Assembly (NCBI RefSeq): GCF_004116495.1
Contig: NZ_PDKC01000006.1
Location: 1-64,000, forward strand
Direction: 5' to 3'
Source: Arcobacter sp. CECT 8985
GTDB lineage: Bacteria; Campylobacterota; Campylobacteria; Campylobacterales; Arcobacteraceae
Length of the DNA stretch: 64,000 nt
Shown: one piece after another, positions 4,813-40,513 of the stretch
Layout of the letters: every line of letters begins with the position of its first letter
Numbering within the stretch: position 1 is the stretch's first letter
The notes under the pieces: model-generated
What the model was told of the DNA's origin: nothing
Seen by the model: only the letters and a program-made list of their open reading frames with translations
Database searches by the model: none
Position numbers and translations under genes: made by a program

Positions 4813-4845
4813 TCCGCCTTTATTTAAAAATTTAAGGATATGGGT

Positions 4846-6144: not shown

Positions 6145-6148
6145 AAAA

Positions 6149-6595
6149 GTGGAAAAATTTTATTATAGTTATGAAGAATTCAAAAATGATACTCAAAAGT
6201 TAGTTGATAGTTGTAGAGACTATAATCCTGATATTTTATTAGCAGTTGCAAGAGGTGGTTTAACATTGTCTCATCTTATGGCTCAAGCAATGGATATGAG
6301 AAATTTATACTCTTTAAATTCAATTCATTATGAAGGTGAATTGAAACTAGATACATTTAATATTTTTAATATTCCAGATGTATCTCATGCAAAAAGAGTT
6401 TTAGTTGTTGATGATATTGTTGATTCAGGTGAAACAATGAGAGAAATTTTAAAAGTATTAAGAGAAAAATTTCCAGAAGTTGAATTTAAACTTGCGACAA
6501 TTTTTTATAAAAAATCTGCTGTATTACAACCTGATTATACAGTTAGAGAAGCTACTGAGTGGATTGACTTCTTTTGGGAAGTTGATGTAAAATAG
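6149..6595 (+). CDS. gpt: Purine phosphoribosyltransferase (Gpt-like)
   Basis: The 148-residue protein has the PRPP-binding loop VLVVDDIVDSGETM near residue 90 and the AVARGGLTLSHLMA segment near residue 33, plus the short C-terminal WIDFFWEVD region resembling xanthine-guanine phosphoribosyltransferase. The family joins a purine base to PRPP to give the nucleoside monophosphate. It starts at GTG, four bases after the permease stop codon, so both are probably one transcript; the pairing supports a guanine/xanthine/hypoxanthine substrate, but the exact base cannot be told from sequence. Confidence 0.85.
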   Translation: MEKFYYSYEEFKNDTQKLVDSCRDYNPDILLAVARGGLTLSHLMAQAMDMRNLYSLNSIHYEGELKLDTFNIFNIPDVSHAKRVLVVDDIVDSGETMREILKVLREKFPEVEFKLATIFYKKSAVLQPDYTVREATEWIDFFWEVDVK

Positions 6596-14267: not shown

Positions 14268-14268
14268 A

Positions 14269-14865
14269 TTATTCCGCCCATGTGTAAATTTCGTAATTTG
14301 TTGCAGAAAAAATTCTTCCATGTTTTATTTTATTTTTCATTTTTTCATTTGCACCAATATGTAATGTTGAAGGTTTATCAAGTTTGTGATTTTTAAATCC
14401 AACAGCATTAGAAGGTATATCTTTTTCATCTGTAATTATAGTTATTGCATTTGCAACACATGTTGCTTCACAAGCAGCTTGTAAACCAATTTCTAATCTA
14501 TGTTCACATAGATTACATTTTTCTGCAATATTTGTATATGGATTTATATAAACAGCACCAATAGAACATGCAGATACACAATCTTGACAACCATCACATT
14601 TGCTAGAATCAATTTTTACTATTCCATTTTCTTTTGTTATTGCACCTTTTGTACAGGCTTTTTGACATAAGGCATCATCACACTGTCTGCACATTAATGG
14701 TAAAAAGTCTCTTTTAACCTTTGGATACGTTCCTTCATCCAAGTAAAGAGTCATAGTTCTAAAGAATCCAAGTGGTGATTTATACTCTTGTTTACATGCA
14801 ACTTCACATGCATGACAACCTACACATTTTTGTGCGTTAATTATCATTTTGTAATTTTTTTTCAT
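14269..14865 (-). CDS. Four-cluster ferredoxin subunit of the molybdoenzyme
   Basis: The 198-residue protein has four cysteine groups: CVGCHACEVACKQ, CRQCDDALCQKAC, CDGCQDCVSACSIG and CNLCEHRL...CEATC, the layout of the electron-transfer B subunits PhsB/TtrB/DmsB. It has no signal peptide, as expected for a subunit carried to the periplasm by its Tat-tagged partner. It is first in the operon and its stop is 1 bp before the catalytic gene start. The response regulator gene is divergent, 212 bp away. Confidence 0.92.
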   Translation of the reverse strand: MKKNYKMIINAQKCVGCHACEVACKQEYKSPLGFFRTMTLYLDEGTYPKVKRDFLPLMCRQCDDALCQKACTKGAITKENGIVKIDSSKCDGCQDCVSACSIGAVYINPYTNIAEKCNLCEHRLEIGLQAACEATCVANAITIITDEKDIPSNAVGFKNHKLDKPSTLHIGANEKMKNKIKHGRIFSATNYEIYTWAE

Positions 14866-20006: not shown

Positions 20007-20997
20007 ATGGCTAAAAAATTACTTGATATTATGAGAGATAAGATAAGGTTTAAACATTATAGTATGAGCACAGAAAGAGTCTATATCTATTGGGCTAAAA
20101 AATATATACTATACCATAACAAAAAGCATCCTAAATATATGGGTAAAGTTGAAATTGAACAATTCCTAACCCATCTTGCCACTGAGTTTAATGTCTCTCC
20201 TACAACTCAGAATCAAGCCTTTAATGCAATATTATTTTTATATGAACAAGTTTTGAATATATCATTAAAAGATGAGAATATTCAAGCTTTAAGAGCAAAA
20301 GAGAGAAAGCATATTCCTGTAGTTTTAACTATAAATGAAGTAAGAAGTATTATATTAAATATGACAGGTATTTATCAACTCATAGTTAAACTTATGTATG
20401 GGTGTGGATTAAGAATGAAAGAATCACAAAATATACGTATAAAAGATATTGATTTCGGATACGATAAAATCTATATTTGGGATAGTAAGTCACTTAAAGA
20501 TAGAACTTTACCACTTCCACTAAAAATAAAAGATGAACTTAAAATTCAAGTTGAGAAAGTAAAAGAAATACACCAAAAAGATTTAGAAAATGGATATGGA
20601 AGTGTATATATACCTTATGCACTTGAACGAAAATTTCCATGGAGTGGAACGGAATCCACACTTGCAAAAAGCAAAATTTGAAACCAAATGGCAATATATT
20701 TTTCCTATGAATAAAATCTCGAAAGACCCAAGAAGTGGTGAACAAAGACGACATCATATTTTAGATGTGACTTTAAGTAGAAATATAAAAAATGCAGTTG
20801 AAAAATCCAATATAGATAAAAGAGTAACCTCTCATATTTTTAGACACTCTTATGCCACTCATTTACTTCAAAATGGTACAGATATACGAAGTATTCAAGA
20901 ACTTTTAGGACATAAATCAATAGAAACAACAATGATATATACTCATGTGGTAAAAGAATTAAATAAAGGTGATATTAAATCACCATTGGATTTTTAA
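20007..20997 (+). pseudogene. intI: Integron integrase gene with a frameshift
   Basis: The first part (20007 to about 20680) encodes the N-terminal SAM-like domain, the catalytic Arg in YGCGLRMKES and the IntI-type segment ALERKFP. The second part (from about 20640 to 20997, shifted by +1) encodes [19 protein letters not shown], the HxxR motif in [17 protein letters not shown] and the nucleophile Tyr in TMIYTHV, ending SPLDF. ALERKFP...WQYIFP is the extra patch that separates integron integrases from XerC/D. The frames do not join in 20635-20690, and about 28 more bases lie between the motifs than in usual IntI proteins, so a small insertion inactivated it, unless the base count there is wrong. 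AGGAG precedes the ATG. Confidence 0.88.
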
Positions 20998-27910: not shown

Positions 27911-27935
27911 ATTGTAGACAATTATTGTAGACAAT
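27911..27935 (+). promoter_or_regulatory. Twin operator upstream of the transporter operon
   Basis: Two copies of the near-palindrome ATTGTAGACAAT lie at 27911-27922 and 27924-27935, 13 bp apart start to start, 58 bp before the binding-protein gene. The same pair with the same spacing occurs at 34146-34170. The form (ATTGT-AG-ACAAT) fits a GntR/FCD-type repressor such as the one at 33410. Confidence 0.85.
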
Positions 27936-27992: not shown

Positions 27993-29162
27993 ATGAAAAA
28001 GTTTGTAAGGTTAGGATTTTTAGTTAGTTTGATTTGTGGAAGTTTGCTAGCTCAAGATACAATTAAAATCGGCTTTGTAGGTACGCTTTCTGGAGCAAAT
28101 GCTGCATGGGGTACTTCAAATGTAAGATCAATGGAAACATCAGCAGACATATATAATAAAAATGGTGGTGTAGAAATTGGTGGCAAAAAATACAAAGTAG
28201 AGATTGTACCTTTTGATGATGCTTTCGATCCAAAGATTGCAGTTGCTGGTATGGAAAAAATGGCACAAGAAGGTATTAAATATGTTGTTGGTCCAAATGA
28301 TGATGCCCAAGCAATTGCAGTAAAACCAATAGCAGAGAGAAATAAAATTGTATATTTTCCATATGCCTTTGATAAAAGTTTATATGTAAAACCAGCAAAC
28401 TATGCTGTATTTGGAATGATTGCTTCATATCAATGGGAACCATCAGTTTATAAATGGTTAAAAGATAATAAAGATGTTAAATCTGTAGCATTTATTGCAG
28501 CAAATGCAGCTGATCCATTAAACCAAAGAGATAATGGTATTAAAATTGCCCAAGACTTAGGTTTAAAAGTTGTTGAAGCAAAAGCTACATATAAAGCTGA
28601 CACTAGAGATTTCTTTTCAGTAATTACTCCAATTATTAAGAAAAAACCTGACCTTTTAGTTCTATCAGGAGTATCTCCTGCTACTGCGCCACTTATTATT
28701 AAAACAGCCAGACAATTAGGTTTTAAAGGTTATATGGCAGCAGGAACTGCTCTTGATGCAAGTATTTTAAAAGAGGGTGCTGGAGATGCAGCAAATGGAT
28801 TTATTTGTCAAGGTGGAGCAGATGCTTCAATTCAATCAGAGAAAATGGAAAAATGGGTTGAGCACTATACTAATAAATATGGTGAATACAACGATGAGTC
28901 AAATACAAAAGTATTTGCTTTAGAATATATTTTAGCTGTGATGAAATCAAATCCAAAAGCTATCAATGATGCCGATGAGTTTTTAAAGACTGTAGATTCA
29001 GGTTGGTCAGCACCAAACCTTTTCTTTAAAGACAAAGATGCAAAACTTAAATTTGTAGGAAAAACTACATTTGGTCAAAATAGACAGTTAGGGGTTCCTT
29101 TAACTCCAAAAATTTACAAAAATGGAAAGTTTGAAACACTATTCGTAGGTCAAGCAGATTAA
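27993..29162 (+). CDS. ABC transporter periplasmic binding protein, branched-chain/amide type
   Basis: The 389-residue protein has a signal peptide (MKKFVRLGFLVSLICGSLLA, cut before QDTIKIGF) and the LivK/UrtA-like fold with IGFVGTLSGANAAWG and GPNDDAQAIAVKPIAER. It captures a substrate in the periplasm for the two permeases and two ATPases that follow. The substrate is inferred to be allantoin or a related purine breakdown product because the operon also holds a hydantoin-type racemase and shares an operator with the allantoin genes. AAGGAGA precedes the ATG. Confidence 0.9.
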   Translation: MKKFVRLGFLVSLICGSLLAQDTIKIGFVGTLSGANAAWGTSNVRSMETSADIYNKNGGVEIGGKKYKVEIVPFDDAFDPKIAVAGMEKMAQEGIKYVVGPNDDAQAIAVKPIAERNKIVYFPYAFDKSLYVKPANYAVFGMIASYQWEPSVYKWLKDNKDVKSVAFIAANAADPLNQRDNGIKIAQDLGLKVVEAKATYKADTRDFFSVITPIIKKKPDLLVLSGVSPATAPLIIKTARQLGFKGYMAAGTALDASILKEGAGDAANGFICQGGADASIQSEKMEKWVEHYTNKYGEYNDESNTKVFALEYILAVMKSNPKAINDADEFLKTVDSGWSAPNLFFKDKDAKLKFVGKTTFGQNRQLGVPLTPKIYKNGKFETLFVGQAD

Positions 29163-29168
29163 TTTAGA

Positions 29169-29190
29169 AGAGGTATCTTTTGATACCTCT
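29169..29190 (+). terminator. Attenuator-like hairpin between binding protein and permease genes
   Basis: AGAGGTATC pairs with GATACCTCT over a 4-base TTTT loop. Such a hairpin often lowers downstream expression or protects the upstream message, giving more binding protein than permease. Confidence 0.65.
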
Positions 29191-29216
29191 ATTATGAAAA
29201 ATAGGGAATTAATTTT

Positions 29217-30089
29217 ATGGAACAAATACTACTCAATGGTTTAATTACAGGTGCTCAATATGCCCTTATTGCATTAGGTTTAACACTAATATTCTCACTT
29301 ATGAGTATATTAAACTTTGCACATGGACAAATGTATGTTTTAGGTGCATTTGTAACTTACTATGTTTATGGGAAACTAGGATTTCCTTTTATTGTAGCTA
29401 TTATTGCTTCGGGTTTAACATTAGCACTAATAGGTGCCATATTTGAAAAATATCTTTTCAATACCGTCTTAAAAAGATCTGTTAGAGAAGAGAGTTCAAT
29501 GCTTCTTGCTGCTGGTACTGCTTTTTTCTTAGATTCATTAATACTAATTGTATTTGGAGAGAAACAAAGAAGTGTTCCAGCACTTGTTGATGGAGTATTT
29601 TTTGGTGAAGATTATGGAATAGATTTAATCATCCCTTATAACAGAGTTGTAATTGGTTTGATTGCAATAGTTTTAATTGTTTCATTTATTCTATTTATGC
29701 AATATTCAAAACCAGGTCGAGCTATGAGAGCTTTAGCACAAGATAAAACAGCTGCTCAGCTAATGGGAGTTGATTTAGATAAATATAGTCTTATTGGTTT
29801 TGCCCTTGGAGCAATGCTTGCTGGTGTTGCAGGAAGTTTACTTGTAACTATTACTGGCGTAAATTCTGGTATTGGTGGAGGTATCTCTATACAAGCCTTT
29901 ACAATGATTATGATTGGTGGTGCTGGAGTTATTTCAGGTGCTATTTTAGGTGGATTTATTTTAGGTTTAGTTGAGGCTTTTGGTCTATATTATCTTCCGG
30001 GAGATGTAACTTACCTTACTATATTTGTATGTTTAATGATATTCCTTACTCTTCGTCCACAAGGACTTATGGGTAAACCTTGGGGGTGA
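29217..30089 (+). CDS. ABC transporter permease, LivH type
   Basis: The 290-residue inner-membrane protein has about eight spans, starts EQILLNGLITGAQYALIALG and contains SILNFAHGQMYVLGAF and TAAQLMGVDLDKYS, all typical of LivH/UrtB permeases. It forms the channel with the next gene product. AGGGAA precedes the ATG; the next gene begins 3 bp after the stop. Confidence 0.92.
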   Translation: MEQILLNGLITGAQYALIALGLTLIFSLMSILNFAHGQMYVLGAFVTYYVYGKLGFPFIVAIIASGLTLALIGAIFEKYLFNTVLKRSVREESSMLLAAGTAFFLDSLILIVFGEKQRSVPALVDGVFFGEDYGIDLIIPYNRVVIGLIAIVLIVSFILFMQYSKPGRAMRALAQDKTAAQLMGVDLDKYSLIGFALGAMLAGVAGSLLVTITGVNSGIGGGISIQAFTMIMIGGAGVISGAILGGFILGLVEAFGLYYLPGDVTYLTIFVCLMIFLTLRPQGLMGKPWG

Positions 30090-30092
30090 TTT

Positions 30093-31058
30093 ATGGAAAA
30101 TAAAAGTTTTATATTAAAAGTAATAATTGCATTAATAGTTTTATTAATTGTTATACCTAGTGTTTTAGTTTTAACACAAAGAAATGATTACATTTATGGT
30201 ATCACCTCTGTTGCTATACTTTCTATGATTAGTGCAGGGGTTTGGTTAACTTTCTATATGGGAAGAATCAATATTGGACAAGGAGCTTATGCTTTAATTG
30301 GAGCGTATACTACAGCTGTTTTAGTTACACAATTAGAGTTATCATTTTGGATATCTATTTTTTTAGCTGGATTTGTGGCTGCTTTTTTTAGTATCTTAAT
30401 TGGTTTACCAATTTTAAGATTAAAAGGTGTGTATTTTTCAATGATTACACTAACTTTAACTGAAGTTGTAAAACTATTAGCTATTGCATTGGTTCCAATT
30501 ACAAATGGTCCAAGAGGTATTACAAATATTCCACTTCCAGGAGAATTAAGTATTTTTGGACTAACACTTATTCCAGATTTTGCCACTATGGAAAACAGTA
30601 AAATTGGATTTTATTATCTTGCAGTTGTTTCTATGATTATCACTTTTGCAATAATGTATAGACTTACAAAATCAAGAATGGGAATTTTACTTAGGTCTTT
30701 ACAACAAAATGAAGAGTTAGCTTCATCTTTTGGGGTAAATATTGCTTACTTAAGAGTTATATCTTATGCTATTGCTTCATTTTTTGGTGGAGTTGGAGGA
30801 GCAATTTTTATTAACTTAACTCAATCTGTTTATCCAACTACTTTCCAAGTAGCAGATTCTATTAATTATATGCTTTATACATTTCTTGGTGGTTTAGCAT
30901 ATGTATTTGGACCAATATTAGGTTCTTTTGTATTGTATTTCTCTTGGGATTTATTATTTATCTTCAAAGAGTATCAATTATTAATTTACTCAGGAATTAT
31001 GATTATCATAATGGTATTTTTACCAAATGGAATTTTGAGTTTAAGGTTTAAAAAATGA
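30093..31058 (+). CDS. ABC transporter permease, LivM type
   Basis: The 321-residue inner-membrane protein has about nine spans with GRINIGQGAYALIGAYTTAV, GVYFSMITLTLTEV and the cytoplasmic loop QNEELASSFGVNIAYLRVIS, typical of LivM/UrtC. It overlaps the first ATPase gene by 4 bp, so the two are translationally coupled. Confidence 0.92.
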   Translation: MENKSFILKVIIALIVLLIVIPSVLVLTQRNDYIYGITSVAILSMISAGVWLTFYMGRINIGQGAYALIGAYTTAVLVTQLELSFWISIFLAGFVAAFFSILIGLPILRLKGVYFSMITLTLTEVVKLLAIALVPITNGPRGITNIPLPGELSIFGLTLIPDFATMENSKIGFYYLAVVSMIITFAIMYRLTKSRMGILLRSLQQNEELASSFGVNIAYLRVISYAIASFFGGVGGAIFINLTQSVYPTTFQVADSINYMLYTFLGGLAYVFGPILGSFVLYFSWDLLFIFKEYQLLIYSGIMIIIMVFLPNGILSLRFKK

Positions 31059-31837
31059 GAAAAAGAATTTTAGAAATAAATAACCTATCTAAAAAATTTG
31101 GTTCTTTATATGCAGTAAATGATGTAACATTTGAGGTATATGAAGGGGAGATTTTATCTGTAATTGGTCCAAATGGAGCAGGAAAATCTACAACATTTAA
31201 ACTAATCTCTTCTTTTTTAAAACCAAGTTCTGGGGAAGTGATTTTTAATAGAGAAAAGATATCTGGTTTAAAACCACATATTGTAGCAAGAAAAGGTGTA
31301 GTTAGAACCTTTCAAGAAACAACAGTTTTTAAAAGTATGAGTGTTAGAGATAATATTATTATAGCCCACCAATTACAAGCAAAATCAAATCTTTTGGGTT
31401 TTTTCTTTAATACAAGATTAGCAAAATCTGATAATGAAAGATTTGGTAAATCTGCCGATGAGATTATTGATTTCCTTGGATTAACTGATGTAAAAGATGA
31501 ACTTGCATCAAACCTTCCACATGGTCTTTTAAGAGGTTTAGGTATCGCAAATGCACTTGCTTGTAAACCAAAAGTCTTGCTTCTAGATGAGCCATTTGCT
31601 GGAATGAATCACGATGAAACAAGAAGATGTATGGATATGGTTAAGCAGATTAAAAACTCAGGGGTTACTGTACTTTTAGTTGAACACGATATGCCAGCAG
31701 TTATGGAAATATCAGACAGAATAGTGGTAATTAGTTTTGGTGAAAAAATAGCAGAAGGGAAACCTGCTGAGATTCAAAAAAACCCTAAAGTAATAGAAGC
31801 TTACTTAGGTGTAGAAGATGAAGAGTTAGGAATTTAA
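31055..31837 (+). CDS. ABC transporter ATPase, LivG type, with unusual signature
   Basis: The 260-residue ATPase has Walker A (GPNGAGKST), Walker B (VLLLDEPFAGM) and the H-loop (LLVEHDM). The signature that usually reads YGQQRRLEIARALA in LivG proteins here reads HGLLRGLGIANALA, losing the Gln pair and two Arg. The partner LivF-type subunit has a normal signature, so the pair may hydrolyse ATP asymmetrically (inference). It would power import through the LivH/LivM channel. Confidence 0.92.
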   Translation: MRKRILEINNLSKKFGSLYAVNDVTFEVYEGEILSVIGPNGAGKSTTFKLISSFLKPSSGEVIFNREKISGLKPHIVARKGVVRTFQETTVFKSMSVRDNIIIAHQLQAKSNLLGFFFNTRLAKSDNERFGKSADEIIDFLGLTDVKDELASNLPHGLLRGLGIANALACKPKVLLLDEPFAGMNHDETRRCMDMVKQIKNSGVTVLLVEHDMPAVMEISDRIVVISFGEKIAEGKPAEIQKNPKVIEAYLGVEDEELGI

Positions 31838-31838
31838 C

Positions 31839-32558
31839 ATGGCATTATTAGAGTGTAAAGATTTAGAGATAAACTACGACCAAGTAAGAGCAGTAAAAAA
31901 AGTAAATTTAAGTCTTGAAGAGGGTGAAACTATCACTTTAATTGGAGCAAATGGAGCTGGAAAATCTTCAATTCTAAAAGCAATAACAGGTCTTAAAAAA
32001 CCAAGTTCAGGTGAAGTGATTTTCAATGGTGAAAGTCTAAATGGAGTAAGTCCTTCAACAATAGTTGAAAAGGGAATTGCAATGACTCCTGAGGGAAGAA
32101 GAGTTTTCCCATATATGAGTGTAAAAGACAACCTTCTAATGGGAGCATTTACAAGAAAAGATAAAGATGGAATCAAAGAGGATTTAGAAAAAGTTTTAGA
32201 AAAGTTTCCAAGACTTAAAGAAAGATTCAAACAACAGGCAAGCACTATGAGTGGTGGAGAACAACAAATGATGGTTATTGGGCGTGCTCTTATGTCTAGA
32301 CCCAAAGTTTTACTTATGGATGAACCCAGTCTTGGTATTGCCCCAAAACTAGTTCAAGATATTGCAAGATCGATTGTACAAATCAATAAAGAGGATAAAG
32401 TCTCTGTTATCCTAGTTGAACAAAACTCAAGAATGGCACTTAAAGTTTCAAATAGAGCTTATGCTATGCAACTTGGAGAAGTATTATTAAGTGGAAACTC
32501 AAAAGATTTAATGCACGATGAACGAATAATTGAACTATACTTAGGAGGAACTCACTAA
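31839..32558 (+). CDS. ABC transporter ATPase, LivF type
   Basis: The 239-residue ATPase has Walker A (GANGAGKSS), a standard signature MSGGEQQMMVIGRAL and Walker B (KVLLMDEPSLG). It completes the transporter. Its TAA stop overlaps the ATG of the racemase gene by one base, binding the enzyme gene tightly to the transporter operon. Confidence 0.93.
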   Translation: MALLECKDLEINYDQVRAVKKVNLSLEEGETITLIGANGAGKSSILKAITGLKKPSSGEVIFNGESLNGVSPSTIVEKGIAMTPEGRRVFPYMSVKDNLLMGAFTRKDKDGIKEDLEKVLEKFPRLKERFKQQASTMSGGEQQMMVIGRALMSRPKVLLMDEPSLGIAPKLVQDIARSIVQINKEDKVSVILVEQNSRMALKVSNRAYAMQLGEVLLSGNSKDLMHDERIIELYLGGTH

Positions 32559-33256
32559 TGAAATTAGCAATTATAAACCCAAACTCTACAGAATCTATGA
32601 CAAAAAAGTGTGAAGAAGTTGCCTTGAAATTTAAAAATCCTAATACCCAAGTTTGGGCTTCAAATCCTACAAATACTCCAAAAAGTATTGAAGGACATTT
32701 TGATGAAGTAAAAAGTTTAATGGGACTAATGAATGAAATCAAAAAAGCGAAAGAGTGGGGAGCAGATGCTTATGTGATTGCTTGCTTTGATGACCCAGGA
32801 TTGGAAGGTGCAAGGGAGCTTGTAGATGGTCCTGTTATAGGTATTTGTGAAGCAGCTATGCATATGACTTCAATTGTTTCTTCTAGTTTTTCGGTGGTAA
32901 CAACTTTAAATAGAGCTATTCCAATTATTGAAGAGTTATCCTACAAATATGGTATGGATAAATTTTGTAGAAAAGTAAGAGCAGCTGATATTCCAGTTCT
33001 TTCTTTAGAAGATGGCACTTGTAATGCAATGGAAAAAATAGAGAGTGAAATTTTAAAAGCAGTCAAAGAAGATAATTGTGAAGCAATTATTTTAGGATGC
33101 GCTGGAATGGCTGATTTAACGATTGAATTATCAAAAAGGTGTAATATTCCAGTTATTGATGGTGTTTTATGTGCAATTAAGATGGCTGAATCAATGGTTG
33201 GAGCAAAACTAATGACAAGCAAAATAAATGCATATGCCTATCCTATTGAAAAGTGA
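32558..33256 (+). CDS. hpxA: Hydantoin/allantoin racemase (Asp/Glu racemase family)
   Basis: The 232-residue protein begins KLAIINPNSTESMTKKCE and has the two catalytic cysteines in VIACFDDPGLEGARE and IILGCAGMADL, as in hydantoin and allantoin racemases. It would interconvert R- and S-allantoin so that both enantiomers reach the stereospecific allantoinase; the allantoin assignment rests on the nearby allantoin operon and the shared operator. It is the last gene of the transporter operon. Confidence 0.85.
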   Translation: MKLAIINPNSTESMTKKCEEVALKFKNPNTQVWASNPTNTPKSIEGHFDEVKSLMGLMNEIKKAKEWGADAYVIACFDDPGLEGARELVDGPVIGICEAAMHMTSIVSSSFSVVTTLNRAIPIIEELSYKYGMDKFCRKVRAADIPVLSLEDGTCNAMEKIESEILKAVKEDNCEAIILGCAGMADLTIELSKRCNIPVIDGVLCAIKMAESMVGAKLMTSKINAYAYPIEK

Positions 33257-33322
33257 GAAAACATTAGCTTTATATGAGATAACTTTAACGTAAAATTTTG
33301 GTGTGCCGTTTATATTAATTGC

Positions 33323-33344
33323 ATTGTGGTTATTGTTTACAGAA
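33323..33344 (+). promoter_or_regulatory. Degenerate operator-like sequence before the regulator gene
   Basis: ATTGTTTACAGAA and an overlapping ATTGTGGTTATT resemble half of the ATTGTAGACAAT operator. They could allow autoregulation, but the match is weak. Confidence 0.3.
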
Positions 33345-33409
33345 ACTAGAATGTAAATTATAATATAATAAACTAATATAAAATGGAAAAAAAGTAGGAG
33401 AAACTTTTA

Positions 33410-34096
33410 ATGAATAAAAAAGATTTATTTACTTTAGAAGATAATATTGTAAATTTTATATTTGATGCGATTTTTACAAAAAATCTTCAACCAGGTACTA
33501 AATTATCAGAAAGTGTTTTAGCAAAAGAATTAAACACAAGTAGAGATGTTGTAAGGAAAGCATTCAGCAAACTACAAACTATGGGCATTTTAAGTTATAA
33601 AAAAAATCAAGGTTTTAATGTCGTTTGGATTAGTGAAGAGAATGCAAAAGATATTTTTGCAACAAGAAAAATAATTGAAGCAGGTATTGTTGAAATTGTT
33701 ACAAAAAGACATTCAAAGGAAAATTTAGACTTATCTGCACTTTTAGAAAATATTGATACAGAAGAATACTTAAAATTATCTTATAGAAATGGGGAATATG
33801 TTAAATCATCTTGTGATTTTCATTTAAATTTAGCTGCATTAAGTGAAAATGAGTTTTTAATTAATGCACTTAAACCTTTAATCCCTTTAAGTATCCTTGC
33901 TGCTTTAATTTATGAAGATGAAAATACAGATTTCTCTTCATATGATGAACATAGAGTTTTAATTGAGACAATTAAAAGCAATAATGTTAGTAATGCAAAA
34001 AATGTTATGCTAGAACATTTAGACCATTGCCTTGATATTTTAGATTTTAATTTAGATACAATTAATAAAAAGAATAAATTTCTTTTTGCTAACTAA
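33410..34096 (+). CDS. GntR-family regulator, FCD subfamily
   Basis: The 228-residue protein has an N-terminal winged helix (PGTKLSESVLAKELNTSRDV, then VRKAFSKLQTMGIL) and an all-helical FCD ligand domain from about residue 85. It sits between the transporter operon and the allantoin operon, whose promoters carry matching twin operators; it is the obvious candidate to bind them, as a repressor released by a pathway intermediate (inference). AGGAGAAA precedes the ATG. Confidence 0.9.
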   Translation: MNKKDLFTLEDNIVNFIFDAIFTKNLQPGTKLSESVLAKELNTSRDVVRKAFSKLQTMGILSYKKNQGFNVVWISEENAKDIFATRKIIEAGIVEIVTKRHSKENLDLSALLENIDTEEYLKLSYRNGEYVKSSCDFHLNLAALSENEFLINALKPLIPLSILAALIYEDENTDFSSYDEHRVLIETIKSNNVSNAKNVMLEHLDHCLDILDFNLDTINKKNKFLFAN

Positions 34097-34145: not shown

Positions 34146-34170
34146 ATTGTAGACAATCATTGTAGACAAT
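34146..34170 (+). promoter_or_regulatory. Twin operator upstream of the allantoin operon
   Basis: ATTGTAGACAAT occurs at 34146-34157 and 34159-34170, spaced exactly as the pair at 27911-27935. It lies about 62 bp before the allantoinase start and just ahead of a TAAAAT -10-like box at 34174. Confidence 0.87.
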
Positions 34171-34232
34171 CTGATAAAATAATCTCATAAATAAATTTAA
34201 AAAGTGATTTTTACTTTTTTATGAGAGATAAA

Positions 34233-35150
34233 ATGAATAATAACAACTACCCTAGAGATTTAATCGGTTACTCAAATGAACCAATAAATCCAAAATGGCC
34301 AAACAATGCAAAAGTTGCACTTCAATTTGTATTAAATTATGAAGAAGGTGCAGAAAACTGCATTCTACATGGAGATGAAGCTTCAGAAGTATTTCTTTCA
34401 GAAATGAACAACCCACAAGCTTTTATAGGACAAAGACACAAATCAATGGAGTCATTATATGAATATGGCTCAAGAGTTGGGGTGTGGAGAATCTTAGAAC
34501 TTTTCAAAGATTTTGATATCCCTGTTACAATCTTCGCTGTAGCAATGGCAGTTGCTAGAAATCCTAAACTTGCTGAATACCTTGCCCTTAACAACTATGA
34601 TATATGTTCACACGGTTATAGATGGATAAACTATCAAACAATTGAAGAGTCTATTGAAAGAGATCACCTTTATAAAAGTATTGAAATATTAGAAAAAATG
34701 TTTGGTACTAGACCACTTGGTTGGTACACAGGACGTGATAGTGAAAATACCAGAAAGATAGTTGTTGAAGAGGGTGGCTTTTTATATGACAGTGATGCAT
34801 ATAATGATGATTTACCATATTTTGCACCAGAAATTACTACAACAGAACACTTAGTAATTCCATATACAATGGATAACAATGACATGAGATTTATTTTTGG
34901 AGGATTTACTCATAGTAACCAGTTTTATAATTACCTAAAAGATAGTTTTGATGCTTTATACCTAGAAGGAAATAAGTCTCCTAAAATGATGAATATTGGA
35001 ATGCACTGTAGAATATTAGGGAAACCTGGGCGAATCATGGCTATGAGAAGATTCTTAGAATATGTAAAAGGATTTGATGATGTTTGGTTTGCAACAAGAG
35101 GTGAAATTGCAAATCATTGGATTAATAATTTTGGAAATAAAGGAAAATAA
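34233..35150 (+). CDS. puuE: Allantoinase, polysaccharide-deacetylase type
   Basis: The 305-residue protein begins NNNNYPRDLIGYSNEPINPK and holds NYEEGAENCILHGD, YGSRVGVWRILELF and CSHGYRWINY, the hallmarks of PuuE, a metal-independent allantoinase of the NodB fold that opens S-allantoin to allantoate. An ATG at 34221 exists, but GAGAG at 34223-34227 fits the ATG at 34233. The stop overlaps the allantoicase ATG by one base. Confidence 0.9.
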   Translation: MNNNNYPRDLIGYSNEPINPKWPNNAKVALQFVLNYEEGAENCILHGDEASEVFLSEMNNPQAFIGQRHKSMESLYEYGSRVGVWRILELFKDFDIPVTIFAVAMAVARNPKLAEYLALNNYDICSHGYRWINYQTIEESIERDHLYKSIEILEKMFGTRPLGWYTGRDSENTRKIVVEEGGFLYDSDAYNDDLPYFAPEITTTEHLVIPYTMDNNDMRFIFGGFTHSNQFYNYLKDSFDALYLEGNKSPKMMNIGMHCRILGKPGRIMAMRRFLEYVKGFDDVWFATRGEIANHWINNFGNKGK

Positions 35151-36148
35151 TGACAAATGTAGCAAGTTGTGAATTAGGTGCAGAAGTAATTTATACAACA
35201 GATGAATTTTTTGCAAGTGCAAATAGAATGTTAGTGGAAACTGAAGCTGTATTTAAAGATGAGTTTGATGATAATGGTCACTGGATGGATGGTTGGGAGA
35301 CTAGAAGAAGAAGAGATGGTGGAAATGATTATTGTATTATCAAACTAGGAAACCTTTCAAAAATCAACTCATTTTTAGTTGATACTTCACACTTTAGAGG
35401 AAACTACCCTTTAGCTGTTTCAATAAAAGGTTATTGTGGAAAAAATAAAGATGATAAAACATTTTTAAAAGAGATTGATAGTGTTGAATGGGTTGAGTTA
35501 TTAACTCAAAGTGATTTACAAGGAAATACTAAACATGACTTTGATTCACTTTCTCAAACTGAATTAACTCATCTAAGAGTTGATATTTACCCAGATGGTG
35601 GAATTGCAAGATTTAAAGCATTTGGTGAAATCTGTTTTGATGAAAAACTTTATGAGCAAGAAAATATCAATGTAGCTTCTATGAGAAATGGAGCAAGAGC
35701 GGTTTATACAAACAACGAATTCTTTGGTCCTTTAAGAAATATCTTAAAAGATAATGAAGCTATTAATATGGGTGATGGTTGGGAGACTAGAAGAAGAAGA
35801 GAACCAGGATTTGACTGGGGAATTATCGAATTAGCTAAGCCTGCAATTATTGATAATGTAATGATTGATACAAACTTTTTCAAAGGAAATTTTGCAGATA
35901 AATTTTCAATGAGTGCTGCATATTTAGAAGATACAACAGATAGTTCAGTTGTAACACAAAGTATGTTTTGGGAAGAGTTAGTAGAACCTCAAAAATTATC
36001 TATGCATAGTAAACATTATTATGATAAAAGCTTTTTGAAACATCAAAAACCAGTAACTCATATTAGAGTAAATATTTTTCCAGATGGTGGAATTTCAAGA
36101 CTTAAATTATTTGGAAAATTTGTAAAAAAAGAAGATATTAAGGCTTAA
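35150..36148 (+). CDS. alc: Allantoicase
   Basis: The 332-residue protein is built from two allantoicase repeats, each with a GWETRRRR motif (near residues 47 and 211) and a downstream HLRVDIYPDGG/HIRVNIFPDGG motif. It hydrolyses allantoate to ureidoglycolate and urea. Its start overlaps the stop of puuE and allA begins 1 bp after its stop, so it is in the middle of one operon. Confidence 0.95.
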   Translation: MTNVASCELGAEVIYTTDEFFASANRMLVETEAVFKDEFDDNGHWMDGWETRRRRDGGNDYCIIKLGNLSKINSFLVDTSHFRGNYPLAVSIKGYCGKNKDDKTFLKEIDSVEWVELLTQSDLQGNTKHDFDSLSQTELTHLRVDIYPDGGIARFKAFGEICFDEKLYEQENINVASMRNGARAVYTNNEFFGPLRNILKDNEAINMGDGWETRRRREPGFDWGIIELAKPAIIDNVMIDTNFFKGNFADKFSMSAAYLEDTTDSSVVTQSMFWEELVEPQKLSMHSKHYYDKSFLKHQKPVTHIRVNIFPDGGISRLKLFGKFVKKEDIKA

Positions 36149-36149
36149 A

Positions 36150-36668
36150 ATGAGAGTTGAACTAAAACCAAAACTATTAACTGATGAATCTTTTAAAAAA
36201 TTCGGAGAAGTTATTTGTACTGAAAATAGAGATTCAAAGATTATAAATGACGGGTATGCACAGAAGTTTTATGAACTTTGTGTAATGGATGCAAATGAAA
36301 AAGGTGGAAGTTCAACTTTACATATTTATGTAGCGAAAAATAGGGAGTTTCCACTACATATAAATATGCTAGAAAAACATCCAAGTTTTTCTCAAACTTT
36401 TATGCCAAGAAGTAAAGAGCCTTTTTTAGTTGTAGTTGCATTGGGTGATGATAAACCTGATTTATCAACAATTGAAGCTTTTTATACAAATGGAAACCAA
36501 GGAGTTTTTTATAATAGAGGTGTGTGGCATTTTCCATTAATTAGTCTAAAAAATAATGAACAATTTATCGTTATTGATAGAGCGGATAATAAAACAGAAG
36601 AACAAAAGATTGTTGAATGTATTGAATATAATATAGAAGAAGAATCTATATATTTATTGGAGGAATAA
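36150..36668 (+). CDS. allA: Ureidoglycolate lyase
   Basis: The 172-residue cupin-fold protein has FKKFGEVI, LHINMLEKHPSFSQTFMPR and YNRGVWHFPL, which match the AllA family. It splits ureidoglycolate to glyoxylate and urea. Length is close to the E. coli enzyme (160). It follows alc after 1 bp. The permease gene is more than 200 bp downstream, separated by two mini-frames and a hairpin. Confidence 0.92.
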   Translation: MRVELKPKLLTDESFKKFGEVICTENRDSKIINDGYAQKFYELCVMDANEKGGSSTLHIYVAKNREFPLHINMLEKHPSFSQTFMPRSKEPFLVVVALGDDKPDLSTIEAFYTNGNQGVFYNRGVWHFPLISLKNNEQFIVIDRADNKTEEQKIVECIEYNIEEESIYLLEE

Positions 36669-36669
36669 T

Positions 36670-36699
36670 ATGTTAGAACTTAAGAGTAAGCCACCATAA
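36670..36699 (+). other. Nine-codon mini-frame MLELKSKPP with strong ribosome site
   Basis: GGAGGA stands 6 bases before an ATG that opens MLELKSKPP and a TAA stop, just 1 bp after allA. It could be a leader peptide that couples translation to the hairpin at 36701-36742, or a chance frame. Confidence 0.4.
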
Positions 36700-36700
36700 A

Positions 36701-36742
36701 GACTTTTTTATTTCAATATTTTAATATTTCCATAAAAAAGTC
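36701..36742 (+). terminator. Hairpin between allA and the permease gene
   Basis: GACTTTTTTAT pairs perfectly with ATAAAAAAGTC (11 bp) around a 20-base loop that contains its own small AT palindrome. There is no T run after it, so it may be an attenuator or a message-processing site rather than a full terminator. Confidence 0.5.
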
Positions 36743-36792
36743 ATAAACGCCAACGTGATTATATAAAAAGAAATATTAAAAAGAGGAATTTT

Positions 36793-36810
36793 ATGAATAT
36801 TAAAGCTTAG
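36793..36810 (+). other. Five-codon mini-frame MNIKA
   Basis: AGAGGA stands 5 bases before an ATG for MNIKA and a TAG stop, 77 bp before the permease start. It is the second such mini-frame in the leader. Role unknown. Confidence 0.3.
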
Positions 36811-36886
36811 TTTTCACTATAAAATAGTTATTTCCAATAATTTTTTGTAGTGGATTTACTGTACGTAACATTAGGGAAGAAAAATA

Positions 36887-38311
36887 ATGATTAATGATGT
36901 AAATAAGGACTCTTTATCTCCTACAAAAAAGAGTGATAAAAATTGGAATTGGTTTGAGGTGTCTAATATTTGGGCAAATGATATACAAAGTCTATTTGGG
37001 TATACATTAGTTGCCTCACTTTTTATTAGTTATGGTGTGTCTGGGTGGACAGCATTTATTGCATTGATTTTTGCTGGATTATTAGTTACTTTTTTTGTAA
37101 ATATATCTGGAAAAGCTGGAGTTGATTATGGAATACCATATCCTGTTTTAGCACGTTCAAGTATGGGAATTAATGGAGCAAAATTATCTGCGATAATAAG
37201 AGCAGTTGTGGCAGTATTTTGGTTTGGTGTTCAAACATATTTTGCTTCAACTGCCCTTCATCTTTTAATAACAGCTTCTACAGGCATAGAGTTAAAAGCA
37301 ACATTTTTAGGAATTGATGCAATAGGTTGGTTATCATTTTTTGTAGTATGGATACTTCAAATGGTAATCTTCTCAAAAGGAATGGATTGGGTATCGAAGT
37401 TTTTAAATTTTGCTGCTCCATTTGTTTATATTGTAATGATAGGCCTTTTAATTGTACTATGGAATGAATCAGATGGACAACTATTTAGTGAAGCAAATAA
37501 TATTTTTTCAAGTAGCAAATCAACATTAAGTACTGAAATACATGGTTTTTTTGCAATTGTAGGAACTATGATTGCTTATTTTGCTGCTGTTATGATTAAT
37601 TTTAGTGATTTTTCTAGGTATTCAAAAGATAATAAGTCAATGATAGTTGGAAATCTTGTGGGACTTCCTTTTAATATGGTTTTCTTTTCAGCTTTAGCAC
37701 TTTTAATTACAGCAGGTTCAGTTGTAGTATTTGGTGAAAAATTAACAAATCCTATGGATATCGTTGAAAAAGCAGATAGTACAGTTTTAAGTTTAATTGC
37801 TGCAATTACATTTTTTATGGCAACTGTTGGAATTAATTTAGTTGCTAATTTTATTCCAGCTGTTAATGGTATATCAAATCTTGCACCTAAAAAACTCTCA
37901 TTTAAAAAATCAGGATTTATCACTTCTTTATTTGCACTTATTATTGGTGGTTTTTGGGTAAGTTTTATTTCAAAAGTAGGAATTAGTCCAATAGTTAATA
38001 CATTAGGTGCAACATTAGCTCCATTATATGGAATCTTGGTAGTTGATTATTATATTATAAAAAAACAAAAATTAGATATAGATTCTTTATATGATGAATC
38101 ATATGAAAGTTTATATTATTATGAAAATGGTTGGAATAAAAATACAATGATTGCATTTGTTATAGGTGCAGTTTTTTCAATTTGTACAGTTTGGGTAGAT
38201 GCATTAAGTAGTTTAAATGGTTATGGATGGATTATTGGTGCAATCTTGGGAGGCTTTATTTACTACTCAACAAAATTATTTTCAATAAATAGACAGTTAG
38301 TATATAATTAA
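36887..38311 (+). CDS. pucI: NCS1-family permease, probably allantoin
   Basis: The 474-residue inner-membrane protein has about twelve spans and NCS1 features: [36 protein letters not shown] and [13 protein letters not shown]. Members import allantoin, hydantoins, uracil or cytosine with a cation. Its place between allA and glcB makes allantoin the likely substrate. A GGGAAG site precedes the ATG. glcB begins 14 bp downstream. Confidence 0.87.
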
Positions 38312-38325
38312 AAAGGAGAATAGGG

Positions 38326-40482
38326 ATGTATAAACAAATTAACAATTTAAATGTGGATGATAAACTTTTTTCTTTAATAAATGAAGAAATTCTTCCTCAA
38401 ACAACTTTAAATAAAGATGAATTTTGGAAAACTTTTGAGAATATTATTGAGGAGTTAACTCCTCAAAATAGAGCACTTTTATCAAAAAGAGATGAAATTC
38501 AAGAGCAAATTGATTCTTGGCATAAAACAAATAAATATGAACAAAATAATCTTGAAGAGTATAAAAACTTTTTAAAACAGATTGGTTATTTAATTGAAGA
38601 AAAAGAGAACTTCAAAGTAGAAACACAAAATGTAGATGAAGAGATAAAACTTCAAGCTGGACCACAATTAGTAGTTCCTGTTAAAAATGCTAGATTTGCT
38701 TTAAATGCAGCAAATGCTAGATGGGGAAGTTTATATAATGCTTTATATGGAACTGATGTAATTCCAACAGATGGTGAACTACTTATTACAAAAGAGTACA
38801 ATGAAAAAAGAGGAAAAGCAGTTGTAACTTATGCAAAAGAGCATTTAGATACAGTTGCACCACTTAAAGAGGGAAGCCATAAAGATGCTATCTCTTACAA
38901 AATTGTAGATGGAAAATTAGAAGTGACACTTCAAAACACTACTACAACTTTAGAAAATACATCAAAACTAATTGCATACGAAGGTGAAAAAGAAAACCCA
39001 AGAGCATTAGTATTTAAAAACAACAATCTTCATGTAATAGTTGAGTTTGACAAAGAAAGCTTTATTGGAAAACTTGATCTTGCTGGTATCAAAGATGTAG
39101 TTGTAGAAGCAGCAGTTTCAACAATTATGGATTGTGAAGACTCAATTGCAGCAGTAGATGCCCAAGATAAAGTTGAAGTTTATAGAAACTGGTTTGGTCT
39201 TATGAAAGGTGATTTAGAAGATAGTTTTGAAAAGGGTGGAAAAACAGTTACTAGAAAATTAAACTCTGATAGAAAATATAAAACTTTAGATGACAAAGAA
39301 TTAATTTTACATGGAAGAAGTCTACTTTTCATTAGAAATGTTGGTCATCTTATGACAAATCCAGCTATTTTGGATAAAGATGGAAATGAAGTATTTGAAG
39401 GGATTATGGATTGTATGCTTACAACTTTAGCTGCAATTCCAGATTTAACTAATAAAAATGAGAAGAGAAATAGTAGAACAAAATCTATGTATATAGTAAA
39501 ACCAAAAATGCACGGACCAGAGGAGGTTGCCTTTGCCGTTAAACTATTTGGGAAAGTTGAAAAAGCTTTAAACCTTCCTGAAAATACTATCAAGATTGGT
39601 ATTATGGATGAAGAAAGAAGAACAACCATAAACCTAAAAGAGTGTATTAGACAAGCTACTAAAAGAGTTGTATTCATCAACACAGGATTCTTAGATAGAA
39701 CAGGTGATGAGATTCATACCTCTATGTTAGCTGGTGCCATGACACCAAAAACAAAAATGAAAAGTGAAACTTGGATAAAAGCTTATGAAACTTGGAATGT
39801 TGATATTGGTTTGGAGTGTGGACTTCAAGGTTTCTCTCAAATTGGAAAAGGGATGTGGGCTATGCCAGATGAGATGGCTAAAATGATGGATGAAAAAATA
39901 TCTCACCCAAAATCAGGAGCAAATACTGCTTGGGTACCATCTCCTACCGCTGCAACTTTACATTCTATGCACTATCATAAAATAGATGTATTTAGTATTC
40001 AAAATGAGCTGAAAGGAAAAAGAAGAGCAACTTTAGATGAGCTTTTAACTATTCCTTTGTTAAATGAGTCTTTATCAAAAGAGACTATCAAAAATGAGAT
40101 AGATAATAACTGCCAAAGTATCTTAGGATATGTTGTTAGATGGATTGATGAAGGTATTGGTTGCTCAAAAGTTCCAGATATAAACAATGTAGCACTTATG
40201 GAAGATAGAGCAACACTTAGAATTTCTTCTCAACATTTAGCAAACTGGATAGAACATGGAATTTGTACAGAAGATGAAGTATTAGAGTCTTTAAAACAGA
40301 TGGCAAAAGTAGTTGATAAACAAAATGAAAAAGATGCAAGTTATGAAAACATGGCACCAAATTATGATGGATATGCATTTAAAGCTGCAAGTGATTTGAT
40401 TTTTAAAGGAAAAGCTCAACCTTCAGGTTATACAGAGCCTCTTTTACATAAATATAGAAGAGAATATAAAGAAAATAAATAA
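38326..40482 (+). CDS. glcB: Malate synthase G
   Basis: The 718-residue protein has the type-G length and motifs [41 protein letters not shown] and [16 protein letters not shown]. It condenses glyoxylate with acetyl-CoA to give malate, so it finishes the route from allantoin into central metabolism. AAAAGGAG lies before the ATG. It is the last gene of the operon and ends at a convergent terminator. Confidence 0.96.
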
Positions 40483-40484
40483 CT

Positions 40485-40513
40485 AATATGACCTACTTGA
40501 AGTAGGTTATATT
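40485..40513. terminator. Bidirectional terminator after glcB
   Basis: AATATGACCTACT pairs with AGTAGGTTATATT (one G-T wobble) around a TGA loop, between glcB and the convergent TPR gene. Confidence 0.75.

What the first reader, a model, noticed from the sequence alone, without database searches (positions are those of the whole stretch)
34233..40482. Complete allantoin-to-malate operon without a urea-using step
puuE, alc, allA, an NCS1 permease and glcB are in order in one run and give glyoxylate plus two urea, then malate. Xanthine dehydrogenase, uricase and urease genes are absent from the window, so allantoin must come from outside or from genes elsewhere, and the fate of urea is open. 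Few Campylobacterota are known to use purine rings as nitrogen source.
Basis: partly seen in the sequence, partly recalled or inferred. Interest (0 to 1): 0.5.

Follow-up and report, generated by a model that had tools for sequence, protein, structure and literature searches.

The report
Allantoin scavenging gene cluster, urease elsewhere
A relative of Arcobacter carries a jointly switched set of genes that should import allantoin, a nitrogen waste product, and turn it into cell carbon and urea, and a urease set elsewhere in its genome can finish the job; the pathway is known, but it is rare in this group of bacteria and the gene mix is unusual.

Summary
The genes are real: allantoinase PuuE, allantoicase, ureidoglycolate lyase, an NCS1 permease and malate synthase G run in order at 34221-40482. 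Two parts of the reading change. First, the unit is larger. A Liv-type ABC importer and an allantoin-racemase homologue (27993-33256) and a GntR/FCD regulator (33410-34096) belong to it: the same perfect 25-bp tandem operator lies upstream of both operons, at 27911 and 34146, the only exact copies in the 2.79-Mb assembly. Second, urea has an obvious fate: a urtABCDE-ureDABCEFG cluster lies on another contig, and all nine distinct puuE-bearing Campylobacterota genomes examined have urease, seven of them on the same contig within about 16 kb of puuE. No HIU hydrolase, no urate oxidase of three types and no assignable xanthine dehydrogenase was found, so allantoin is most likely imported. The route is known but rare in this phylum (5 of 397 sampled genomes). 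In gene content it is a bacterial counterpart of the yeast DAL cluster, with partly non-homologous parts. Unproven: substrates of both transporters, inducer, growth on allantoin. Part of the cluster appears recently exchanged between lineages, judged against one core gene.

The parts
27911..27935 (+). tandem palindromic operator upstream of the importer/racemase operon (two 12-bp ATTGTnnACAAT units, 13 bp apart)
   Evidence: exact match, one of 2 in the window, 0.07 expected; one of 2 exact matches in the whole genome; present at the same place in L002 (1 mismatch), L003 and L004
27993..29162 (+). periplasmic substrate-binding protein of a Liv/HAAT-type ABC importer; ligand unknown, allantoin or another ureide inferred
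   Evidence: PF13458 156.2 bits; only distant PDB relatives, LivJ/HAAT type, best E about 1e-13; no NCBIfam match at 1e-20
29217..30089 (+). ABC permease, LivH-type
   Evidence: PF02653 131.6 bits; UrtB and LivH models below cut-off
30093..31058 (+). ABC permease, LivM-type
   Evidence: PF02653 125.6 bits
31055..31837 (+). ABC ATPase, LivG-type
   Evidence: NF008449 LivG 252.5 bits, below its cut-off 362
31839..32558 (+). ABC ATPase, LivF-type
   Evidence: NF008626 LivF 226 bits, below its cut-off 441
32558..33256 (+). allantoin racemase homologue (Asp/Glu/hydantoin racemase family)
   Evidence: PF01177 189.5 bits; no NCBIfam match; best PDB hits 3qvj/3qvk 'Putative hydantoin racemase' (1.6e-63, 1e-60) and 5lfd 'Allantoin racemase' (1.4e-42); both positions that are Ser in chain 3qvk are Cys here, C76 and C181
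33410..34096 (+). GntR/FCD transcription regulator, probable owner of the tandem operators
   Evidence: PF07729 and PF00392 over cut-off; next to puuE in 6 of 6 Campylobacterota loci and in G315 and G379
34146..34170 (+). second tandem palindromic operator, upstream of puuE
   Evidence: exact match
34221..35150 (+). puuE, allantoinase (polysaccharide-deacetylase-like)
   Evidence: TIGR03212 461.9 bits over cut-off; PDB 1z7a and 3cl6 'Puue allantoinase', E 5.9e-125 and 3.9e-123
35150..36148 (+). alc, allantoicase
   Evidence: TIGR02961 391.8 bits over cut-off; PDB 1sg3 and 1o59 'Allantoicase'
36150..36668 (+). allA, ureidoglycolate lyase
   Evidence: PF04115 158.1 bits; PDB 1xsr, 1xsq, 1yqc, 2bdr
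36701..36742 (+). hairpin in the allA-NCS1 gap, alike in L002 and L003, shorter in L004; role unknown
   Evidence: inverted repeat; fold z -4.37 here, -4.85, -2.41 and -1.09 in L002, L003, L004; the four-sequence consensus fold differs; no Rfam match
36887..38311 (+). NCS1-family permease, allantoin uptake inferred
   Evidence: PF02133 257.4 bits; best NCBIfam models include allantoin permeases, all below cut-off; PDB Mhp1 hydantoin transporter, E about 9e-14
38326..40482 (+). glcB, malate synthase G
   Evidence: TIGR01345 1095.1 bits over cut-off
40485..40513 (+). terminator-like stem-loop after glcB
   Evidence: 13-pair stem; consensus match only

Best explanation
An imported-allantoin utilisation regulon of two adjacent operons. 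Operon 1 (27993-33256) makes an ABC importer and an allantoin racemase; operon 2 (34221-40482, possibly with an internal start before the NCS1 gene) makes PuuE, allantoicase, ureidoglycolate lyase, an NCS1 permease and malate synthase G. A GntR/FCD protein encoded between them binds a tandem operator in front of each operon and is released by a pathway ureide. Allantoin enters, the racemase converts it to the form PuuE accepts, PuuE gives allantoate, allantoicase gives ureidoglycolate and urea, AllA gives glyoxylate and a second urea, malate synthase joins glyoxylate to acetyl-CoA, and the urease encoded on contig C15 turns both ureas into ammonia. Shown by sequence: gene families, synteny, shared operator, presence of urease, absence of upstream purine genes. 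Inferred: substrates, regulator binding, inducer, flux. The stated confidence is for the enzyme route fed by import with urease downstream; that the ABC importer carries allantoin is less sure (see the section on the most novel reading).
For: Enzyme families over curated cut-offs for PuuE, allantoicase, AllA (Pfam) and malate synthase G. Racemase aligns with 3qvj and 5lfd over residues 1/2-230/231 of 232, both cysteines kept. Full twelve-gene order in 3 of 6 Campylobacterota loci (L002, L003, L004); gntR-puuE-alc-allA in 6 of 6 and in G315 and G379 (OHCU decarboxylase intervenes in L007 and G315). Operator pairs: 2 exact copies in the genome, both here, plus one site with 3 mismatches on C9; backwards control 0; 0.07 expected in the window. 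Racemase at E up to 1e-20 in 2 of 397 sampled phylum genomes, both with puuE. Urease in 10 of 10 puuE handles, nine distinct genomes, G297 and G002 showing identical coordinates, against 94 of 397 in the phylum sample. Own genome without PF00576, PF06181, PF01014 or an HpxO match.
Against: No substrate is proven. The binding protein has only distant solved relatives. NCS1 and AllA are below the finer NCBIfam cut-offs. No operator unit lies near the urt-ure operon on C15, so urease is not visibly co-regulated. GntR binding is inferred from position; no operator within 3 mismatches was found in G379 or in L007's genome although both carry gntR-puuE, and the backwards control pattern gives 1 to 3 hits in 7 of 9 genomes at 3 mismatches. 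OHCU decarboxylase was not searched in the own genome, and absences rest on a draft of 82 contigs (99.96% complete).
Confidence: 0.85

Rival explanations
1. The Liv-type ABC importer and racemase serve another ureide, hydantoin or amino acid derivative, and only operon 2 is for allantoin; the shared operator reflects one regulator with two substrates.
For: The binding protein's nearest solved relatives are leucine- and amino-acid-binding proteins; the nearest solved racemases are named hydantoin racemase; the loci of L005, L006, L007, G315 and G379 show no such ABC or racemase in the stretches read, so neither seems essential for the pathway.
Against: 5lfd is named allantoin racemase; that 3qvj/3qvk are the Klebsiella allantoin racemase HpxA is recalled. 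Same exact operator and adjacency; racemase only in puuE genomes, 2 of 397.
Confidence: 0.25
2. A remnant of a complete xanthine-to-malate pathway: the upstream half (XDH, PuuD, UraH, OHCU decarboxylase) was lost and the remaining genes mainly dispose of allantoin made by chemical oxidation of urate.
For: L007 and G315 carry PuuD, UraH and OHCU decarboxylase inside the same cluster.
Against: The own cluster has importers and a racemase and all frames are open; 7 of 9 distinct puuE genomes show no PuuD (several are metagenome assemblies), so the short form is the commoner one. The cluster tree does not resolve which state is older (supports 0.000 and 0.322 at deep nodes).
Confidence: 0.15
3. 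The pathway is for carbon, with urea released, as proposed for allantoin-using SAR11 (PMC11698098, passages seen).
For: Malate synthase sits in the operon; no operator unit is near the urease operon, which is unlinked here and in the genome of L004.
Against: A urease and urea-importer set is present; nine of nine distinct carriers have urease, seven of them on the same contig within about 16 kb of puuE. The SAR11 allantoin users in that paper are said to lack urease.
Confidence: 0.15

Closest known systems
Yeast DAL cluster (DAL1, DAL2, DAL3, DAL4, DCG1, DAL7)
   Same: Same six functions side by side: allantoinase, allantoicase, ureidoglycolate lyase, allantoin permease, racemase, malate synthase (gene list from PMC3646786, passages seen); likewise without the urate half (PMC3646786 and PMC3419248, passages seen).
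   Different: Allantoinase is PuuE (deacetylase-like) and malate synthase is type G; that Dal1 is amidohydrolase-like and Dal7 is type A is recalled. Adds an ABC importer and a GntR regulator; urea can go to urease, while yeast uses urea amidolyase (recalled).
SAR11 allantoin users (PMC11698098, passages seen)
   Same: An allantoin NCS1 permease and allantoin-catabolism genes (the figure legend lists PuuE, allantoicase and ureidoglycolate lyase) without the full upstream purine operon.
   Different: Those genomes are said to lack urease; this one has urease, a urea importer, a racemase homologue, an ABC importer and operon-borne malate synthase.
Uric acid modules of Acinetobacter plasmids (puuE, uao, hiuH, uacT, allA, alc, hpxO; PMC10117892, passages seen)
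   Same: puuE, alc and allA of the same names and functions, on mobile DNA.
   Different: They start from urate with HpxO and UacT; the passages seen list no racemase, Liv-type ABC or malate synthase.
Purine clusters of Arcobacteraceae AH-541-O20 (L007) and genome G315
   Same: gntR-puuE-alc-allA order with urt and ure genes at the same locus; glcB in L007 as well.
   Different: They add OHCU decarboxylase, PuuD and UraH, and L007 a high-scoring MoCoBD protein on the same contig; in the stretches read they show no NCS1, Liv-type ABC or racemase.

Membership tests
Allantoin utilisation by the allantoicase branch | allantoinase present | tested here: met
   TIGR03212 over cut-off
Allantoin utilisation by the allantoicase branch | allantoicase present | tested here: met
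   TIGR02961 over cut-off
Allantoin utilisation by the allantoicase branch | ureidoglycolate lyase present | tested here: met
   PF04115 158.1 vs 23; finer NCBIfam models below cut-off, best 153.2 vs 230
Allantoin utilisation by the allantoicase branch | growth on, or enzyme activity with, allantoin | not testable with these tools
   needs culture or purified enzymes
Allantoin racemase (HpxA / Pseudomonas type) | two catalytic cysteines in the racemase fold | tested here: met
   C76 and C181 aligned with the two positions that are Ser in chain 3qvk; their catalytic role is recalled
Allantoin racemase (HpxA / Pseudomonas type) | racemises allantoin | not testable with these tools
   needs purified protein
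Complete purine (urate) degradation | urate oxidase (PuuD, cofactor-free uricase or HpxO) in the genome | tested here: not met
   none in G000
Complete purine (urate) degradation | HIU hydrolase in the genome | tested here: not met
   no PF00576 match in G000
Complete purine (urate) degradation | OHCU decarboxylase in the genome | not tested
   not searched in G000
Complete purine (urate) degradation | xanthine dehydrogenase in the genome | tested here: inconclusive
   one MoCoBD_1 protein on C18 with 2Fe-2S, XdhC-like and MocA-like neighbours and no FAD subunit in that four-gene run; XDH models far below cut-off, best 177.5 vs 780
Urea ABC transporter UrtABCDE (for 27993-32558) | subunits above the Urt model cut-offs | tested here: not met
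   UrtB 147.9 vs 250.3, UrtD 205.3 vs 304.1, UrtE 209.4 vs 285.8; the genome's UrtA over cut-off is on C15, 573.1 vs 492.75
Allantoin permease (NCS1) | above the allantoin permease model cut-off | tested here: not met
   NF008476 272.4 vs 620; NF047713 229.9 vs 800; NCS1 superfamily membership met
Yeast DAL-type cluster | same six functions, adjacent (judged by family) | tested here: met
   against the gene list in PMC3646786
Yeast DAL-type cluster | homologous allantoinase (Dal1; amidohydrolase, recalled) | tested here: not met
   the allantoinase is PuuE, PF01522 and TIGR03212, so the likeness is convergent at least in this step

The most novel reading that the evidence does not exclude
The Liv/HAAT-type ABC importer with its racemase is a dedicated scavenger of racemic allantoin, a transporter kind not assigned to this substrate as far as I recall, and it travels horizontally as a module among Campylobacterota, building a bacterial DAL-like cluster that feeds urease, so that these bacteria harvest nitrogen from purine waste of other organisms without the urate oxidation half.
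Probability: 0.45. Interest if true: 0.55.

Novelty: new variant of a known kind. Interest (0 to 1): 0.42.

Why it matters
It predicts a nitrogen niche for a group better known (recalled) for sulfur and hydrogen metabolism and for pathogens, points to two named strains that carry the core genes with urease (S. arcachonense DSM 9755 and P. lekithochrous A1R12, which show no NCS1, Liv-type ABC or racemase at the locus), offers a candidate ABC-type allantoin importer with a matching racemase, and gives a bacterial case of the gene content of the yeast DAL cluster for asking why importing allantoin instead of urate is favoured. Caution on the last point: the urate oxidase of the longer clusters here is PuuD, which is recalled to pass electrons to cytochrome c, so oxygen saving is not a necessary reason.

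Tried and rejected
Rejected: 'no urea-using step' at genome level. Rejected: the Liv-type ABC as the urea transporter. Rejected: the C18 molybdoprotein as a clear xanthine dehydrogenase, though purine oxidation by it is not excluded. Riboswitch idea for the allA-NCS1 gap: no Rfam match at gathering score in the window or at E up to 5 in 36600-36950; the four-sequence consensus fold disagreed with the single-sequence hairpin; left open. Operator control of urease: one single-unit match with 1 mismatch in 19 kb of C15, not near the urt-ure operon. Origin of the cluster outside the phylum: not settled; the only outgroups I had were six Burkholderiales loci, and in the PuuE tree they joined the L004 branch by a very long stem, so no root is claimed. 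The iqtree2 run gave no tree file; FastTree was used instead. Print: 'allantoin + Arcobacter' 3 papers (listing only, titles off the subject), 'allantoin + Sulfurospirillum' 0, 'allantoin + Campylobacterota' 12 papers, 10 listed (passages of one, PMC12542696, seen: allantoin and Campylobacterota appear there unconnected), 'allantoin + Epsilonproteobacteria' 9 (listing only), and wider searches of which only the top of the list was seen. PMC11265409 on ocean Arcobacteraceae (passages seen) names urea utilisation once and has no 'purine', 'uric' or 'urease' in its main text. Subscription journals are mostly not held, so absence from print is not shown.
Full report
What is there. Four of the five are confirmed as to family by models over their cut-offs: PuuE and allantoicase, ureidoglycolate lyase (Pfam) and malate synthase G; the NCS1 permease is confirmed as to superfamily while the allantoin-specific models stay below cut-off.

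The unit is larger. Immediately upstream lie a Liv/HAAT-type ABC importer (binding protein, two permeases, two ATPases), a racemase and a GntR/FCD regulator, 27993-34096. The racemase matches solved chains 3qvj and 3qvk ('Putative hydantoin racemase', recalled to be the Klebsiella allantoin racemase HpxA) and 5lfd ('Allantoin racemase') over nearly its whole length, and has cysteine at both positions that chain 3qvk shows as serine; they are C76 and C181 here and in L002, L003 and L004.

One regulon. Reading the gaps showed a 25-bp tandem of two 12-bp palindromes in front of the ABC operon and again in front of puuE. In the window it occurs twice at up to 3 mismatches, both exact; 0.07 are expected, and 1 of 100 shuffles gave as many as 2. 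In the whole genome there are two exact sites, these two, plus one site with 3 mismatches on C9; the same pattern read backwards gives none. In the relatives, every site with at most 2 mismatches (L002, L003, L004, L005, L006 and G315 genomes) lies at the allantoin locus; four 3-mismatch sites lie elsewhere; G379 and the L007 genome have no site within 3 mismatches. The backwards control gives 1 to 3 hits per strand in 7 of the 9 genomes (G379 3, G001 2, G002 2, G003 1, G004 1, G005 1, G006 1; none in G000 and G315), so weak sites carry little weight. That the GntR protein binds here is inference from position and from the general shape of FCD-family operators (recalled). The single unit at up to 1 mismatch is not enriched in the window (11 found, 9.76 expected).

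Urea. The own genome has one urease alpha gene, on contig C15. The stretch around it holds urtA, urtB, urtC, urtD, urtE, ureD, ureAB, ureC, ureE, ureF and ureG in one direction. urtA, ureAB, ureC and ureG are over NCBIfam cut-offs and ureD over Pfam's; ureE matches below cut-off; urtB to urtE and ureF are assigned by place and by matches to the relatives, of which urtB and urtD of L005 are over cut-off. All 10 handles tested have urease; they are nine distinct genomes, because G297 and G002 show identical coordinates and contig length. In seven of the nine the urease gene lies on the same contig within about 16 kb of puuE: the genomes of L002, L003, L005, L006 and L007, and G315 and G379 (L007 is the farthest). 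It is on another contig in the own genome and in the genome of L004. In the phylum sample 94 of 397 genomes have urease, and all 5 of 397 with PuuE are among them; by my own arithmetic that is about 7 in 10,000 by chance, ignoring kinship.

Source of allantoin. The own genome has no HIU hydrolase, no PuuD, no cofactor-free uricase and no HpxO match (that model rings weakly in 12 of 14 control genomes, never over its cut-off). One MoCoBD_1 protein on C18 scores far below every xanthine dehydrogenase model and its four-gene run holds no FAD subunit. OHCU decarboxylase was not searched there. Import is therefore the likeliest source. Two of nine distinct carriers (L007's genome and G315) have PuuD; UraH was searched in seven genomes and found in one, L007's, and a homologue is also seen in G315.

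Distribution and movement. PuuE over cut-off occurs in 5 of 397 sampled phylum genomes; of the four listed members of the own genus, the own genome included, one has it. The racemase occurs in 2 of 397 at E up to 1e-20, both with PuuE. Of the 12 loci fetched with PuuE, six are Campylobacterota and six Burkholderiales; the full twelve-gene order is in L002, L003 and L004, and gntR-puuE-alc-allA in all six, with an OHCU decarboxylase between puuE and alc in L007. Between the window and L002, binding protein to puuE are 95-99% identical in protein with 68-92% identity at fourfold sites, alc is 89% with 66%, and allA, NCS1 and glcB are 78-85% with 56-58%; one core gene, oorA, is 79% with 56%. Against L003 the pattern differs: racemase and gntR are closest (97% and 95%, fourfold 79% and 81%), the binding protein is near the oorA level (88%, 57%; oorA 78%, 55%) and glcB is 86% with 71%. 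So parts of the cluster look recently exchanged between these lineages, in a mosaic. In the cluster tree S. arcachonense and P. lekithochrous are sisters (support 1.000), whereas oorA puts P. lekithochrous with G315, L004 and G379 (support 1.000). All this rests on a single core gene and small trees.

How it compares. The six functions are those of the yeast DAL cluster as listed in PMC3646786, including the racemase DCG1 and malate synthase DAL7 (passages seen), and PMC3419248 states that importing allantoin instead of urate removes the oxygen-requiring urate oxidase step (passages seen). The likeness is convergent at least for the allantoinase, which is of another family. SAR11 allantoin users (PMC11698098, passages seen) have a similar short pathway and are said to lack urease. 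AllA of E. coli releases urea and depends on nickel (PMC3793230, passages seen), which fits a urease-bearing host.

What stays open. Transport substrates, inducer, flux and growth are untested. The hairpin between allA and the NCS1 gene has no Rfam match and no known role. Absence from print is stated only for the searches named in Tried and rejected.

Noticed in passing
window 36669-36886; L002, L003, L004 same gap: Inverted repeat and flanking conserved blocks between allA and the NCS1 permease gene; fold z -4.37 in the window and -4.85 in L002, weaker in L003 and L004; no Rfam match. Could be an RNA leader or a processing or terminator element.
   Followed up: partly
L002 690-3509, L003 585-3422, L005 6197-9039, L006 6196-9030, L046 5771-8607: A polar-amino-acid-type ABC importer lies divergent from gntR in five allantoin clusters and is not beside the window cluster; in L005 and L006, which show no NCS1 at the locus, it may be the ureide importer.
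   Followed up: partly
L007 and L044/L045: Longer purine-to-urea clusters in the family with OHCU decarboxylase, PuuD, UraH, urt and ure genes at one locus.
   Followed up: partly
L040 5286-9340 (own contig C18): Molybdenum hydroxylase run (2Fe-2S, MoCoBD, XdhC-like, MocA-like) without an FAD subunit; substrate unknown.
   Followed up: partly
window 4840-6595: NCS2-family permease (PF00860) followed at once by a phosphoribosyltransferase-like gene (judged from its translation; no NCBIfam match at 1e-20), suggesting nucleobase salvage next door.
   Followed up: no
window 20007-20997: Two overlapping frames that read like two parts of one tyrosine recombinase (judged from the translation, not scanned), perhaps a broken integrase.
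   Followed up: no
window 11733-14865: Molybdopterin oxidoreductase, best model thiosulfate reductase PhsA but below cut-off, with a ferredoxin-like subunit upstream (judged from the translation, not scanned).
   Followed up: no
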